DNA of 22,968 bases from a virus: positions 1-22,968 of the IMG/VR virus record IMGVR_UViG_3300047368_000122. One strand, given 5' to 3'. Below are positions 5,089 to 17,507 of this stretch, piece by piece. Both the position numbers and the translations under genes were made by a program. The notes under the pieces are model-generated. The model saw only the letters and a program-made list of their open reading frames with translations. It had not been told where the DNA came from and did no database searches. Positions within the stretch are counted from its first letter, which is position 1, and every line of letters starts with the position of its first letter.

Positions 5089-5407
5089 CCTCGACCTTTT
5101 TAACTAAAACCTGACTCTTCGGCGGGCGGTTGTCCTGTGGCCGCTTAACGCACCTGGCAACCCCCTCCCGATCATCAAAGTAAATCAGCATTAAACGAGG
5201 ATTGGGGACCAGTTTAAGCACCCTCGCCATAACTGTCTCCGATTTAGCCGGTAAATCCTCATCCTTTGCAGATTCCTTCCAAAATCCAATGCAAGTCCCC
5301 TTTGGGATGCCCGTCTGCCTACTGATCTTTACCCAGCTTATCCCGCTCTTTCTAAGCTCAACCACTTCCTCACGCTGTTCCTCGCTCCACTTCCGATTAG
5401 TTGCCAT
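5066..5407 (-). CDS. Helix-turn-helix protein, 113 aa
   Basis: The ATG at 5407 overlaps the terminase stop as TGATG and is preferred over a TTG one codon further upstream. The N-terminal 45 residues (KWSEEQREEVVELRKSGISW, then VKISRQTGIPKGTCIGFW) form a clear homeodomain-like HTH of the kind found in transposase N termini and small DNA-binding regulators. The C-terminal half (LVPNPRLMLIYFDDREGVARCV...VEDDLYRIV) looks like a small alpha/beta domain I do not recognise. A role in late transcription or in packaging-site recognition fits its place next to the large terminase. Confidence 0.7.
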   Translation of the reverse strand: MATNRKWSEEQREEVVELRKSGISWVKISRQTGIPKGTCIGFWKESAKDEDLPAKSETVMARVLKLVPNPRLMLIYFDDREGVARCVKRPQDNRPPKSQVLVKKVEDDLYRIV

Positions 5408-7008
5408 CAATAAGATCCTCCACCCGTTGAAATTAATTCCTCCTCATCAAAATACTCGAAATTGCCGATGCAAAAATATCTACATACATCAACAAAATCT
5501 TTGGAAAAATCCTTCAAGTTTCCAGGACTGTATGCCTGAAGACAACTTATGAGATTTTGGCATTCATCCGAAAACATCAATTTAGGATGATTATCCAATC
5601 CCATCTCCTTTTCCCGATCCCATGCGAGTAAATTATTGATCGCCTGAAGACCCGTTTCGATGTCCAAGGCTTCAGCGGGCTGAACAATAATATCTTCATC
5701 CGATAAATCATCGATAATGTTGGAAGATCCTTCCGCCTTTTGATAACTCGCCGCCCCTAAACGGGGGTCAATCACCCGAATTACCTCACTGTCCCCACAA
5801 ATCTTTTCCATCCTCCTAATCTCATCTGCGTAATCCTTCAACCCGTACCCGTTCGGTTGGGCCGCCTCGCCAGCGGATAATTTATCCTTGGTCAGATCAA
5901 TCCATCCACCCCAAGTGTCAAAATCAGGAAATTCCTTTACCGCCCAGGCAACTCCATGTGGATCGATTGCAAATAATACCATTGTCCAGGGCTTTGCTCC
6001 CGCCGGATCAATCGATAATACCCAATTTGCATCCGAGAAATCAGGAAGATTTTCGGGGGATACGAAGTTACGATCCGAGAGAGAATGAAAGATTGCCCTA
6101 GACTGCCTCACAGGGACTCCATACGCCCGACATAAAATTGTCTCCCGCTTCTCCCCTTCCAACTGATTCTTCATCGCCGCCCAACCGCCAAAGGGATTCG
6201 CCGCTGTATGAAAATACACCACAGAACTGGCTTTGCGGATGGGCTGTTGAACGAGGGGGACTTCCTCCCCGTCCAAGAGATCCGCTTTCGTTGACTGGAT
6301 GGTTCGCGCACCTGTGAGCATCGATTTGACTACACTGTTCCATCCGTCAACGGCGGTGAAGCTGATAATTCCCTTGGAATTGCGGGTCACGGTGCGGTAG
6401 CGAAGTGTATTTACCCAGCTCATCGGCACCAATTCGTCCGCCCAATATCCGATGTTATGTGTTTGATTATCAACGACTTGCGGCGAACCGATTTCTCCTC
6501 CCTCAATGGTGCTGATATCTTGGGACCAGTTACGGAAAATACATTCCGAGCGGTTAGGTAAAGTAAACTTTCCGGCAGTAAAGCCATTCCGAAGTGAATA
6601 CATAACATATCCAACCTTACCACGGCCCAAGGATTTCAGTTCTTTAGGCAGATATTTAAATATTAGCTTCTGCTGAAATTGTATGCTGTTGGCCGAGGTC
6701 TCTGTAAGACACCATATAATCGTGCCGGGGTTCTCTACTAGGGATTGAACTACCCGCTTGGCCGCCCATTCCGATTTACCGGCTCGGTTACCGCCCATAA
6801 CGAGGATTTCAGAATGTTCTTTAAGCTGATCGTCTGCCCGCTTCCAGGTATCCAGTTCAAAGCCATATCTATAAGGATCATCCTTTTCGAGCTTGATCGC
6901 TTCTTCCCTCTTCTCCCAGTATGCGAGGATTGATTCGGGGGTCATCGACAGCATCTCATCGGAGGTTAAGGCTGGTAAGGCTGGATGCGGTGTCCAAGAA
7001 AGTGGCAT
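5407..7008 (-). CDS. terL: Terminase large subunit
   Basis: This 533-residue motor protein cuts concatemeric phage DNA and pumps it into the procapsid. The ATPase half shows Walker A GGNRAGKS (72-79) and a Walker B-like IGYWADE ending in D191/E192. The nuclease half shows the RNase H-like acidic set: SIDPAG (D334), VIDPRLG (D414) and FVDVCRY (D507). Length and order match the family. It is the first gene of the leftward head cassette, downstream of the repeat-bearing non-coding region, so its promoter should lie there. AGGA sits only a few bases before the ATG. No frameshift or inserted domain was seen. Confidence 0.95.
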   Translation of the reverse strand: MPLSWTPHPALPALTSDEMLSMTPESILAYWEKREEAIKLEKDDPYRYGFELDTWKRADDQLKEHSEILVMGGNRAGKSEWAAKRVVQSLVENPGTIIWCLTETSANSIQFQQKLIFKYLPKELKSLGRGKVGYVMYSLRNGFTAGKFTLPNRSECIFRNWSQDISTIEGGEIGSPQVVDNQTHNIGYWADELVPMSWVNTLRYRTVTRNSKGIISFTAVDGWNSVVKSMLTGARTIQSTKADLLDGEEVPLVQQPIRKASSVVYFHTAANPFGGWAAMKNQLEGEKRETILCRAYGVPVRQSRAIFHSLSDRNFVSPENLPDFSDANWVLSIDPAGAKPWTMVLFAIDPHGVAWAVKEFPDFDTWGGWIDLTKDKLSAGEAAQPNGYGLKDYADEIRRMEKICGDSEVIRVIDPRLGAASYQKAEGSSNIIDDLSDEDIIVQPAEALDIETGLQAINNLLAWDREKEMGLDNHPKLMFSDECQNLISCLQAYSPGNLKDFSKDFVDVCRYFCIGNFEYFDEEELISTGGGSY

Positions 7009-7120
7009 AGTCCTATTTTATCAGATGGATTGATGAGTGGTACACCTGGTGAGGCAATTTTTTAAAATTAGTGAAATTTTGTTCGGACATACTGATAATC
7101 AAGGGTTTAAGATTTAATCC

Positions 7121-7175
7121 TAGCATATTCCAGCATAAGCTAACATAAGCTAACATATGCTAACATGAGCTAACA
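7121..7175. repeat. Decamer direct repeats, set A (TAACATAAGC-like)
   Basis: Five to six back-to-back 10-bp units: TAGCATATTC, CAGCATAAGC, TAACATAAGC, TAACATATGC, TAACATGAGC, then the partial unit TAACA. The period is exactly 10 bp, close to one helical turn, so a protein bound to each unit would sit on the same DNA face. The outer copies are the most diverged. Confidence 0.9.
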
Positions 7176-7178
7176 CTA

Positions 7179-7220
7179 TGTGGAGCAATGTGGAGGAATG
7201 CGTGGAGCAATGTGGAGCAA
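7179..7220. repeat. Decamer direct repeats, set B (TGTGGAGCAA; reverse TTGCTCCACA)
   Basis: Four units: TGTGGAGCAA (7179), TGTGGAGGAA (7189), CGTGGAGCAA (7201, after a 2-base insert) and TGTGGAGCAA (7211). Read on the minus strand each ends in TCCACA, as does the DnaA box TTATCCACA, with one extra base in between. They directly follow set A but have a different sequence, suggesting a second binding protein. Confidence 0.9.
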
Positions 7221-7272
7221 TTTGTGAAAATTTTTTCATGGGCTTCAATCGGTCTCGGTGACCGGCGGGCCG

Positions 7273-7296
7273 CCCGATCCGACCCCCCTCCCCCCC
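7273..7296 (-). other. G-quadruplex-capable G tracts on the minus strand
   Basis: The plus strand has CCC at 7273-7275, six C at 7283-7288 and seven C at 7290-7296. The minus strand therefore carries G7, A, G6, a 7-base gap and G3, which satisfies the usual four-run pattern of at least three G with loops up to seven bases. It lies between the repeat arrays and the AT-rich segment. Confidence 0.6.
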
Positions 7297-7454
7297 TGTT
7301 GGCGATTGACTGATATAATTTTACAAACTGCACGATTCATTTGCGTTTTCATAAAGCATTAATAATCAGCTATTTAATATTTACACTAATTTCGTGCAAG
7401 AATGATTATGTCTAATTCTCCTTGCGCAAATATTTATTTGGTTTAATTGTTTAA

Positions 7455-7988
7455 ATGCTTTCACCGATTAAAATCATGCCAACGAAAAGAAAGAGAACTA
7501 CAGTGATGCCGGATAATCTTCCAGCGAACCTAACCATCGATGAGGCTTGTCCGATAATCTACACCGCTCAAGGTTTATTCGATAAGAGACCAGGTGACTA
7601 TGCAAAGTTGGTTCAAATGCTTACGGATGGGATACCGGTCACTCGGATCAAGAAAGAGTTGAAAGTATCCCACAATACTATCGCTGTGGTTCGGTCTCGA
7701 GAGAAAGAGGTGATCGAGTCCTCGAAGAAAGTAATGAGAGGATTGATCGGCCATGCTTCACAGCTTGCAGTCGAAAAGATGATCGAAAAGCTGGAGAATG
7801 ATGAAATACCAAACGGAGTCCTACCAATCGCCACAGGCATCCTAATCGATAAGCATCGCCAGTATGAAGGTGAGCCTACTCAGACAATCGAAGTGAAGAA
7901 ATCTTTAAGCCTAGATGAGATCCGAGCAGAGCTTGCTAATCTGAAGGATGAGAAGGTAATCGATGCTGAGGTTACCGACATAGATTAA
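7455..7988 (+). CDS. HTH DNA-binding protein, possible small terminase subunit or regulator
   Basis: This is the only convincing plus-strand gene, 177 codons. Residues about 46-82 form an HTH (YAKLVQMLTDGIPVTRIKKE, then LKVSHNTIAVVRSREKE). A helical middle follows (ASQLAVEKMIEKLENDEIPN), then a stretch like LPIATGILIDKHRQYEGEPT and an acidic helical tail. N-terminal HTH, helical core and acidic tail is the layout of small terminase subunits, and the position next to terL fits; a repressor or repeat-binding replication protein is equally possible. Three in-frame ATGs (7455, 7476, 7506) compete; none has a strong ribosome site, though 7506 is preceded by a purine-rich AAGAAAGAGAA. It converges with the replication operon. 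Confidence 0.8.
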   Translation: MLSPIKIMPTKRKRTTVMPDNLPANLTIDEACPIIYTAQGLFDKRPGDYAKLVQMLTDGIPVTRIKKELKVSHNTIAVVRSREKEVIESSKKVMRGLIGHASQLAVEKMIEKLENDEIPNGVLPIATGILIDKHRQYEGEPTQTIEVKKSLSLDEIRAELANLKDEKVIDAEVTDID

Positions 7989-14425: not shown

Positions 14426-14600
14426 CTTTCTTCCTCCCTTTGTTTCTGAAATCTAATTCATGCTTGGCTTTTGGGCGGACCCTCGGAATCTTGGTCCTAA
14501 CGATCCGCCCATTGACATAAGCCAGTTGGTTCTTCGTCCAAAAGAGGTCGTAAGCCTGTTTGACCTCGAAATGGAAACTGTACCAAGCATCCGGATTCAT
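14397..14600 (-). CDS. Small basic protein, 67 aa, unknown
   Basis: The start overlaps the preceding TGA as ATGA. The product begins MNPDAWYSFHFEVKQAYDLF with many aromatic residues and ends with a very basic tail (RTKIPRVRPKAKHELDFRNK and onward). Composition suggests nucleic acid contact, but no known fold was recognised. Confidence 0.65.
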   Translation of the reverse strand: MNPDAWYSFHFEVKQAYDLFWTKNQLAYVNGRIVRTKIPRVRPKAKHELDFRNKGRKKDGDYKEGNI

Positions 14601-14803
14601 TCCCCTAAGTATTTCTCTATTTCCTTATCTACCTTGCGCAGGTCCGCCGTTATCAGGTTTAATACATACCTGGACACGCCTTGCTTCTGACTATAAGACC
14701 GCCTTTTCAAGGCTTCCTTAATTTTATCAGGCATATTCACGCAGATATTAGTCTCCATCACCGAGTCGGGCAGGAGGTAACTCTTACTCTTGAATCTCTT
14801 CAT
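14597..14803 (-). CDS. Ribbon-helix-helix-like protein, 68 aa
   Basis: The frame remains open up to 14905, but the ATG at 14803 is chosen: AGGAGG lies 6 bases upstream and another gene occupies the upstream bases in a different frame. The product has a short strand (TNICVNMPD) followed by two helices (KIKEALKRRSYSQ and VSRYVLNLITADLRK), the arrangement of Arc/CopG-type DNA-binding dimers. It may regulate this operon. A longer 102-residue form starting MRIFQTS is possible but less natural. Confidence 0.65.
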   Translation of the reverse strand: MKRFKSKSYLLPDSVMETNICVNMPDKIKEALKRRSYSQKQGVSRYVLNLITADLRKVDKEIEKYLGE

Positions 14804-14909
14804 CTTCTTCCTCCTCTTCGGGTTTTGGATTCCGCCAACCTTCTCCCCGCCTTCTCCGGCGATCGGCAATGAGTTCGTCGTGGTACTCGTCTGAAATATC
14901 CTCATCCAT
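14784..14909 (-). CDS. Small acidic protein, 41 aa, in an alternative frame
   Basis: The ATG at 14909 opens MDEDISDEYHDELIADRRRR followed by a Glu-rich run to TAA 14784. It begins within the last codons of the exonuclease gene and overlaps the start of the 68-aa gene by 20 bases. Its sharply acidic composition looks more like a real protein than the competing frame's Thr-, Ser- and Gly-rich translation. Its 3' end contains the ribosome site for the next gene. It may be a DNA mimic or an inhibitor, but nothing proves this. Confidence 0.55.
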   Translation of the reverse strand: MDEDISDEYHDELIADRRRRRGEGWRNPKPEEEEEDEEIQE

Positions 14910-15789: not shown

Positions 15790-16140
15790 TCATTTAATCT
15801 GCTCTCCCACCTTACGGATTATTGCCCCAAACTCTCGGTCGCATTCGAGGAAGTCCTCAATTCGTTTGCAAGTGTGCGTGACATTGGAATGGTTGCGGTT
15901 AAAAATCCTTCCCGTCTCTTCCACTCCTTTAATCTGCCGAGTGAAATAAATAGCGATCTGACGGGCGAGGGAAACTTTCTGTGTCTTCCCCCGCCCCTCG
16001 ATCTCATCTACTTTCACCCCCACAGTGTTAGCCGAAATCCTTTTAATATCTTCAATGGTCATCATAGAACCATGTCGGCCATTATTGCCGCCCAACCGAT
16101 GATTAGTAATATAGCTATCGGGTTCATCAGAATGGTACAT
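15790..16140 (-). CDS. DnaA domain IV-like origin-binding protein (mini-DnaA)
   Basis: Residues about 27-110 match DnaA domain IV, the double-strand DNA-binding domain. A helix with ARQIAIYFTRQIKG aligns with ARPRQMAMALAKEL of E. coli DnaA, and IFNRNHSNVTHTCKRIE aligns with AFGGRDHTTVLHACRKIE, so the recognition motif is NHSNV instead of DHTTV. The ATPase domain III and domains I-II are absent. The ATG at 16140 overlaps the SSB-like gene by 14 bases; an internal ATG at about 16065 is a fair alternative. It probably binds DnaA-box-like sites at the phage origin, and the changed motif suggests altered specificity. Confidence 0.8.
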   Translation of the reverse strand: MYHSDEPDSYITNHRLGGNNGRHGSMMTIEDIKRISANTVGVKVDEIEGRGKTQKVSLARQIAIYFTRQIKGVEETGRIFNRNHSNVTHTCKRIEDFLECDREFGAIIRKVGEQIK

Positions 16141-16810
16141 TTTCAGGTGCTGGACCGGTGAACTGTGTTCCCATTGTCTGCTGTTGCGGAGCGGGCTGTT
16201 GTACAGGTTGCTGTACGGCGGGAACCGGTTGAGGCTGATCAACATTCACAGTCGTATTAGTTTGAACCGGCTGTTGCTGAATCGGGGCTTGCATCGGTTG
16301 AACCGGTTGAACCACGGGAGCCTGTTGAATAGGTGCGGGTGCTTCGTCCCCTGTTGGGATGACAAATCTTGATCTGTCAGGTATCTGTGCTTCCCTGTCC
16401 GCCATTACTGGCATAATGGCCGTGATATCTGCATACTCCCGATTTTTTTTGCTAGTCTTATGCATGATGTTCAGAGTTGCTCCCTTACCGACCATGCTCT
16501 CGGTATCAAATCCGCCAAATGGCATTGTCCCGTTCCAACTCGTTAAAGTCTTAAACAACTTACTCTTTTCGTTTAAGCTGATTGTCATTTCACCGGTTTG
16601 GATCATTGTCCCATCGGGAAGACCGAATAAAAAACGGCAGAAGTTCTTCGTTTCAATTATGCTCGGATCTTCGTAGGAAGGTCGCTGAATGTTCATTGAA
16701 TCCTTAACTGCTAAACAGACTGCAAATGTCTGTCCTTGTGGGGCGAGTGTAGTTAGAGGCCAACCGGTTATAGGTCCGCTTCCGTTCGATGATTGCTGTA
16801 ATATTGCCAT
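16127..16810 (-). CDS. Single-stranded DNA-binding protein-like
   Basis: This 227-residue protein has an N-terminal folded region (about 1-150) and a long Gln/Pro-rich tail (about 155-220) ending in PAPENVPF. A disordered tail with a final acidic or hydrophobic VPF tip is the layout of bacterial SSB (DDIPF), where the tip recruits partners. The folded region (ETKNFCRFLFGLPDGTMIQT, then GEMTISLNEKSKLF) is strand-rich and fits an OB-like core, though no strict signature is visible. It lies between resolvase and DnaA-like genes. The alternative is another replication accessory protein. Confidence 0.7.
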   Translation of the reverse strand: MAILQQSSNGSGPITGWPLTTLAPQGQTFAVCLAVKDSMNIQRPSYEDPSIIETKNFCRFLFGLPDGTMIQTGEMTISLNEKSKLFKTLTSWNGTMPFGGFDTESMVGKGATLNIMHKTSKKNREYADITAIMPVMADREAQIPDRSRFVIPTGDEAPAPIQQAPVVQPVQPMQAPIQQQPVQTNTTVNVDQPQPVPAVQQPVQQPAPQQQTMGTQFTGPAPENVPF

Positions 16811-16857: not shown

Positions 16858-17319
16858 TTATCGATTAATAAGAAAATGTCTTAGTATTAGGATCGCATCG
16901 GCAGTCTTAAGGGTTATCCTCCCATTGGTATTGGGGAAGAATCGCTTGGCATGGTTCATCAGAACTTTCTTCCGCTTGTTTGAAGTTAAGCCCTGAAGTC
17001 CGCTTAATCCTTTTTGCCATTCCTGTGGGCGGACAAGTGTGAAAGGTATTTCTGCCATACGAAGTACCCCTTGAATAAATCCATAGTTCTCGCCTAGTTT
17101 GAATGAAGATGAGCTAGGAATCATCTTACCAGCAAAAGGCGGAACCAATTCGACCACCGCCTCGAGCGATGTTATTAATGGGTGGTCCTGAAGATCCTGA
17201 ATGTGTTCTACAAATTCAAAGTCCTCACCGATGGAATGCAGTTTAATATCACGCAAACCGCCCCAACCGATTGCGTAACCGCCTGACTTACCTGGATCAA
17301 TTCCGATGGTGACCTTCAT
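16858..17319 (-). CDS. RuvC-like Holliday junction resolvase
   Basis: This 153-residue protein has the RuvC/RNase H acidic set: IGIDPGKSGG (D8), VVELVPP (E57) and LKTADAILI (D141). Length matches the family. The stretch VRPQEWQKGLSGLQG and the following basic SNKRKKV helix also fit RuvC-like resolvases. It would cut four-way junctions before packaging. The start overlaps the previous TGA as ATGA. No catalytic residue is missing, although the second position of the C-terminal pair (often D/H) is less clear. Confidence 0.85.
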   Translation of the reverse strand: MKVTIGIDPGKSGGYAIGWGGLRDIKLHSIGEDFEFVEHIQDLQDHPLITSLEAVVELVPPFAGKMIPSSSSFKLGENYGFIQGVLRMAEIPFTLVRPQEWQKGLSGLQGLTSNKRKKVLMNHAKRFFPNTNGRITLKTADAILILRHFLINR

Positions 17320-17507
17320 GCGACCTCCTCGGAAAAGATGGCAATTACTTTTCGGACATCGGAAGCTAGGTAGTGCTGACCTCTTTTCCTGATTCCGAAC
17401 TCTCGCTTGAAAGCATTGAGAGCTTTATCAGATTTTAATCTGAATATTTCTTTGACCTCATTCTTGGTGAGGAATAAATTGTGATATTGGTTTAAATTAG
17501 TTTCCAT
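17316..17507 (-). CDS. Small winged-HTH protein (excisionase-like), 63 aa
   Basis: The sequence LTKNEVKEIFRLKSDKALNA, then FKREFGIRKRGQHYLASDVR, matches the small MerR/excisionase-like winged HTH pattern. It is the first gene after the structured leader and promoters at 17510-17704, so it may control the operon by binding its own leader DNA. No normal ribosome site precedes the ATG at 17507; instead a perfect hairpin ends two bases before it. The stop overlaps the resolvase start. Confidence 0.7.
   Translation of the reverse strand: METNLNQYHNLFLTKNEVKEIFRLKSDKALNAFKREFGIRKRGQHYLASDVRKVIAIFSEEVA

What the first reader, a model, noticed from the sequence alone, without database searches (positions are those of the whole stretch)
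7121..7175. Second decamer array in helical phase beside terL
Five to six units of TAACATAAGC type repeat every 10 bp with no spacer, so bound proteins would all sit on one DNA face. The sequence differs from the neighbouring array, pointing to a different partner, most simply the plus-strand HTH protein encoded 280 bp away. It could be a packaging (pac) site, an iteron origin or an operator.
Basis: partly seen in the sequence, partly recalled or inferred. Interest (0 to 1): 0.75.

Follow-up and report, generated by a model that had tools for sequence, protein, structure and literature searches.

The report
Optional decamer-repeat cassette before phage terminase
The repeats are real, but they belong to a short optional piece of regulatory-looking DNA that related water-borne phages gain, lose and swap in front of their DNA-packaging gene, so they are not the essential packaging site or the obligatory target of the neighbouring gene's protein.

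Summary
The array is real: six head-to-tail 10-bp units at 7117-7176 (motif ATGYTRGNAT on the minus strand), then four GTGGAGCAAT units at 7180-7221; 0 of 2000 shuffles give such a period-10 array. Comparison with 80 terL relatives changes the reading. Both arrays lie in one ~163-bp insert (about 7056-7218) that 54 relatives lack and 23 loci (window included) carry, immediately upstream of a conserved leaderless terL promoter. It shows at least 10 presence/absence changes on the terL tree, has at least two payload types with a common core, and stands before different terL-promoter backgrounds. Array length varies only in 10-bp steps (3-6 units). A relative whose HTH protein is 165/169 identical has no array, so an essential pac/cos/TerS site, or an obligatory site of that protein, is not supported. 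The better packaging candidate is the neighbouring poly-G block (7283-7296), inside a possible ~215-bp terminal repeat (7251-7465; suggestive only). Decamer arrays with other units recur at other intergenic sites in distant family members. Best reading: an exchangeable upstream regulatory cassette whose phased repeats seat an oligomerising DNA-binding protein. The cassette is shown; the function is inferred.

The parts
7117..7176 (-). decamer array, six units of ATGYTRGNAT type
   Evidence: shuffles
7180..7221 (-). second decamer array, four ATTGCTCCAC units, one 12-bp step
   Evidence: the same array in other phages
7069..7090 (-). constant core of the insert, ATGTCCGAACAAAATTTCACTA, shared by payload types A, B and the third type
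7092..7101 (-). near-palindrome TGATTATCAG next to the core (possible operator)
   Evidence: present right of the poly-G block in all insert-bearing loci tested and in none of the 49 insert-lacking ones
7056..7218 (.). optional insert (type A) with near direct repeats ending in AATTGC at its edges
7015..7020 (-). -10 box TAAAAT of the presumed leaderless terL promoter
   Evidence: 81 of 81 loci, background 14%
5407..7008 (-). terL, large terminase subunit (533 aa)
   Evidence: weak Pfam Terminase_6N; relative of annotated large terminases
7283..7296 (-). conserved G7AG6 block, packaging/terminus candidate
7251..7465 (.). possible terminal direct repeat (hypothesis from contig ends)
7476..7988 (+). 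HTH protein, 170 aa from the conserved start (177 aa from 7455), possibly small terminase
   Evidence: identity unresolved

Best explanation
The array is part of an optional, horizontally exchanged ~163-bp upstream cassette, inserted about 45 bp before the start of a presumed leaderless terL gene and just outside the conserved poly-G (probable packaging/terminus) block. SHOWN by comparison: presence/absence, flanking direct repeat, several payload types on a common core, occurrence before different terL-promoter backgrounds, 10-bp copy-number steps, a conserved -10 box. INFERRED: the cassette works as an upstream regulatory region. The phased decamers are degenerate direct-repeat sites for a small DNA-binding protein that polymerises head-to-tail, about one subunit per helical turn (as BldC, RdfS/Xis-type wHTH or RHH proteins do), and its binding, together with a regulator at the constant core and near-palindrome, tunes transcription of terL and the late genes behind it. 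Array length sets occupancy and changes by slippage or recombination; exchange goes by homologous recombination at the AAATTTYCACYAATTGC repeats.
For: Insert states: 54 none, 14 A, 1 A+B in tandem, 6 B, 2 other or truncated, 4 too short to tell. At least 10 forced changes of state on the terL tree. L066 has AAATTTCCACCAATTGC...AAATTTCCACTAATTGC around the insert where sister rows L063/L064 have one such copy. Type A stands before at least four different terL-promoter backgrounds. All array indels are multiples of 10 bp, 3-6 units; unit positions 2, 3 and 7 invariant, position 8 nearly free, as in a recognition motif. TANNNT box 5-7 nt before the ATG in 81/81 loci. The core pattern was found in 26 viral contigs, at terL in all those examined. 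Analogues: BldC and RdfS (PMC5859096, PMC11963761), ParR with 10-bp repeats (PMC5016525).
Against: No binding protein identified: no gene convincingly restricted to array-bearing genomes; small HTH/RHH-looking ORFs have no Pfam match. No transcription data. Unit sequence drifts fast between lineages and between neighbouring arrays, which fits poorly with one highly specific protein. Most relatives do without the cassette.
Confidence: 0.42

Rival explanations
1. Selectively near-neutral modular insert: a tandem-repeat (VNTR) piece that spreads by homologous recombination between co-infecting phages and grows or shrinks by slippage, with no dedicated binding protein.
For: Optional in the family, many state changes, copy number changes by whole units, fast drift of unit sequence and different unit mixtures in near-identical phages.
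Against: The core and the unit motif (TG, G7 invariant) are conserved; non-coding arrays keep period 10 although neutral slippage should give any period; the same TGCTCCACA array recurs at different sites in far relatives.
Confidence: 0.3
2. Accessory packaging element: the array helps terminase docking or sets packaging efficiency, like repeat boxes of pac sites, in those phages that carry it.
For: It lies between terL and the conserved poly-G block / possible terminus; SPP1 pac has direct repeats, though the related SF6 small terminase DNA-binding domain showed little specificity for them (PMC4737164).
Against: Absent from most relatives, among them one with a 165/169-identical HTH protein; in far relatives the arrays stand kilobases from terL.
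Confidence: 0.12
3. Arm-type sites of a tyrosine recombinase / att region acquired from temperate relatives.
For: In G010/G012 a TGCTCCACA array starts at the end of a recombinase-like ORF; arm-type sites are short direct repeats (general knowledge).
Against: No PF00589 integrase in insert-bearing G000, G001, G002, G007, G019 (G000, G007 and G019 are incomplete); several unlike units side by side would need several recombinases; G003, which has an integrase, has no array.
Confidence: 0.07
4. Iteron-type replication origin.
For: Head-to-tail short repeats in an AT-rich intergenic region.
Against: Optional in the family; no initiator gene next to it; the primase/helicase-like and DnaA-domain genes lie elsewhere.
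Confidence: 0.04

Closest known systems
BldC / RdfS-type direct-repeat sites (MerR-like wHTH proteins; PMC5859096, PMC11963761)
   Same: head-to-tail direct repeats near one helical turn apart, variable number of units (BldC), weak or absent consensus (RdfS), in promoter or att regions
   Different: BldC units are 9 bp; no BldC-like protein is shown here; here the sites sit in a swappable phage cassette
ParR/parC plasmid centromeres (PMC5016525)
   Same: contiguous short direct repeats (10-bp in the cited ParR complex) bound in helical phase
   Different: no par operon or motor gene identified; the array is optional and beside terL
SPP1/SF6 pac site with direct-repeat boxes (PMC4737164)
   Same: direct repeats next to terminase genes
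   Different: there the region is required for packaging initiation; here the array is absent from most relatives
VNTR loci / minisatellites (general knowledge)
   Same: copy number differs by whole units between close relatives
   Different: 10-bp step throughout, part of a modular insert with a conserved core, unlike arrays side by side

Membership tests
packaging site (pac/cos) of this phage family | present in all members that share the terminase | tested here: not met
   54 of 77 classifiable loci lack it
packaging site (pac/cos) of this phage family | virion DNA ends map to it | not testable with these tools
   only contig ends are available; they hint at the poly-G/GACC block, not the array
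obligatory site of the 177-aa HTH protein | site goes with the protein and its HTH segment | tested here: not met
   165/169-identical HTH protein on a contig without array
VNTR locus | copy number varies by whole units between relatives | tested here: met
   3-6 units, indels of 10 or 20 bp
helically phased direct-repeat operator (BldC/RdfS/ParR-like) | contiguous repeats of about 10 bp with a partly conserved unit | tested here: met
helically phased direct-repeat operator (BldC/RdfS/ParR-like) | cognate oligomerising DNA-binding protein | tested here: inconclusive
   candidate ORFs 17316-17507 and 14597-14806 have no Pfam match; no array-specific gene
helically phased direct-repeat operator (BldC/RdfS/ParR-like) | changes transcription of the neighbouring gene | not testable with these tools
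   needs reporter or transcript data
iteron origin | repeats conserved because replication needs them, initiator gene adjacent | tested here: not met
   optional in the family; no adjacent initiator
attP with arm-type sites | tyrosine integrase in the same genome | tested here: inconclusive
   PF00589: none in insert-bearing G000, G001, G002, G007, G019, but G000, G007 and G019 are fragments

The most novel reading that the evidence does not exclude
A family of aquatic phages carries a general class of 10-bp tandem arrays, dispersed over intergenic sites and swapped between lineages, in which the helical period is kept while the unit sequence is free to change (up to five different units side by side). 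The arrays would be length-coded platforms for a filament-forming DNA-binding protein that reads phase more than sequence, exchanged as plug-in control modules in front of genes such as the terminase.
Probability: 0.2. Interest if true: 0.75.

Novelty: new variant of a known kind. Interest (0 to 1): 0.48.

Why it matters
It shows a phage late-gene control region evolving by plug-in cassettes, with presence, type and array length changing between near relatives; these are natural variants for testing how the number of phased repeats sets transcription. It also moves the search for the packaging site of this uncultured family from the decamers to the conserved poly-G block and gives a concrete terminal-repeat hypothesis to test with reads. 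If period is kept while unit sequence drifts, that would be an unusual form of constraint on DNA.

Tried and rejected
Rfam: no RNA family in the window. RNA folding of the insert: z = -2.3 on one strand, -0.5 on the other, not convincing. Host origin of the TGCTCCACA array: 3 hits in 257 Gb of prokaryote genomes, about what chance gives for a 19-mer (about 2), in unrelated MAGs. Identity of the HTH protein: family searches weak or contradictory, AlphaFold pLDDT 55 and no significant PDB fold match, no alignment to ORFs before terL in two distant phages. Genes confined to array-bearing genomes: only small ORFs, holin-like by eye, judged accessory. Literature searches for decamer arrays in phages found nothing relevant. 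The G001 end repeat was kept as suggestive only: the end of G003 and of G004 also recurs near their start (overlaps of about 135 bp at other places), as assembly closure would give. The constant core as a sigma-70 promoter was considered; by eye the -35/-10 match is poor, above all in the other payload types.

Full report
OBSERVATION. On the minus strand it reads GTGTTAGCTC ATGTTAGCAT ATGTTAGCTT ATGTTAGCTT ATGCTGGAAT ATGCTAGGAT, plus-strand 7117-7176; the neighbouring array is 7180-7221. None of 2000 dinucleotide shuffles of the intergenic region gives a period-10 array of score 60.

SETTING. The window is a 22,968-bp virus record, probably a fragment (near relatives run to about 37-38 kb). 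terL (5407-7008, minus) and the HTH gene (start about 7476, plus) are divergent. Between them lie, from terL: a -10 box TAAAAT six bases before the terL ATG, the insert with core and two arrays, a CCCATGAAAAAATTTTCAC anchor, the poly-G block, and an AT-rich stretch. A TANNNT box 5-7 nt before the ATG is found in 81 of 81 loci against a 14% background, so terL is probably transcribed as a leaderless mRNA and the insert lies directly upstream of its promoter.

RELATIVES. A search of 2.9 million viral contigs with TerL found 192 relatives; the best 80 (85-98% identity of the best segment) were kept. In 54 loci there is no core and no array; where the anchor is measured it lies 59-69 bp from terL (a few loci also show a second, chance anchor match further off). 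In 23 loci, window included, there is an insert, with anchor distances of 176-232 bp, or 318 bp in L024, where a type B and a type A insert stand in tandem. Type A carries the two decamer arrays, type B a different payload (CCGCCTCCGAAGC...ATCGATAATCCACCCCTCGTAAGTA), and L073 shows the end of a third; all share the core. On the terL tree the state changes at least 10-11 times. L066 has the insert between AAATTTCCACCAATTGC and AAATTTCCACTAATTGC, where its sister rows L063/L064 have one such copy. Type A stands in front of at least four different terL-promoter sequences, which points to exchange between phages. Copy number is 3-6 and every length change within the decamer array is 10 or 20 bp.

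The contig of L042/L150 encodes an HTH protein 165/169 identical to the window's and the stretches held contain no array or core. Conversely, 69-71%-identical HTH alleles (L086 = L002, L087 = L005) stand beside type A inserts. The array is therefore not an obligatory site of that protein. What the HTH protein is stays open: terminase-small-subunit families match 2 of 41 members weakly; the model is of low confidence with no significant fold match.

PACKAGING. The GGGGGGGAGGGGGG block (run lengths vary) is found in all close relatives examined whole and in the far relatives G008, G009 and G014. The 37,447-bp contig G001 has a 214-bp end repeat (213/214) running from GGTGCAAGC, just upstream of the HTH gene, to GAC beyond the poly-G block; L048 begins at the homologous base, and L196, L220 and L218 end within a few bases of the homologous end. 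Against this, G003 and G004 show end overlaps at other places, as assembly closure gives, and other contig ends scatter through the region. A terminal repeat at about 7251-7465 is a hypothesis, not a result.

A WIDER CLASS. The 19-mer TGCTCCACATTGCTCCACA has 15 hits in viral contigs. Thirteen lie in the window's close family or in contigs tied to it by TerL or other proteins; the other two (G010/G012) share only a few genes with it and have no TerL match, and there the array begins at the very end of a recombinase-like ORF. It has only 3 hits, in unrelated MAGs, in 257 Gb of prokaryote genomes. In far members it stands elsewhere: after the terL stop codon together with CTTACTACAG, CTTTGTATAG, CTTATTCCAC and GTTGGAACTG arrays (G011; its near relatives L325-L329 have other mixtures), beside the poly-G block 5 kb from terL (G008), or in other spacers (G009, G014). 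Several share the odd 12-bp step TGCTCCACGSAY. The ATGYTAGNAT array also occurs in contigs without detected kinship (L315, L316, L319, L320, L323, L324); L319 again has unlike units side by side. Non-coding period-10 arrays are 9 of 28 in array-bearing genomes, 2 of 10 in array-lacking ones and 0 of 5 in five control phages. The numbers are small and the array-bearing set was partly chosen for its arrays, so this is a lead, not a proof.

MECHANISM. The position upstream of a promoter, a constant core with an adjoining near-palindrome (TGATTATCAG, 7092-7101), and phased degenerate direct repeats of variable number fit a regulatory cassette read by an oligomerising DNA-binding protein. Known proteins of that behaviour are BldC and, as proposed by its authors, RdfS (PMC5859096, PMC11963761), and ParR (PMC5016525). 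This step is inference; a near-neutral repeat insert is the main rival.

VERDICT. Observation confirmed. Interpretation partly supported: a phased binding array is possible; an essential pac or origin role and an obligatory HTH partnership are not supported. The cassette is a new variant of known kinds (phased direct-repeat operator, VNTR).

Noticed in passing
7015-7020 (minus) and 80 relatives: terL appears to be leaderless: a TANNNT -10 box ends 5-7 nt before the ATG in 81 of 81 loci, though its sequence differs (TATCAT, TAAAAT, TACACT, TACAAT, TAACAT, TATAAT).
   Followed up: partly
7283-7296 and 7251-7465: Conserved G7AG6 block inside a possible ~215-bp terminal direct repeat inferred from contig ends; packaging-site candidate.
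   Followed up: partly
L106 (G011:13939-14151), L325-L329: Four to five different decamer arrays head to tail right after the terL stop codon, in different mixtures in closely related phages.
   Followed up: partly
L319:11284-11407: ATGCTGGAAT, ATGTTAGGAT, ATGTGAGAAT and CCGCAACGAT arrays side by side in a contig with no detected kinship to the window's phage.
   Followed up: no
L103/L107 (contigs G012/G010): An ATCGCTCC/TGCTCCACA array begins inside the last codons of a tyrosine-recombinase-like ORF; possible arm-type sites.
   Followed up: no
17316-17507 (minus) and 14597-14806 (minus): Small ORFs that by eye look like a winged-HTH (excisionase/MerR-like) and a ribbon-helix-helix protein; no Pfam match; candidate partners of direct-repeat arrays.
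   Followed up: partly
15793-16245 (minus): Phage ORF with a clear DnaA C-terminal DNA-binding domain (Bac_DnaA_C, E 2e-15), too short to hold the DnaA ATPase part.
   Followed up: no
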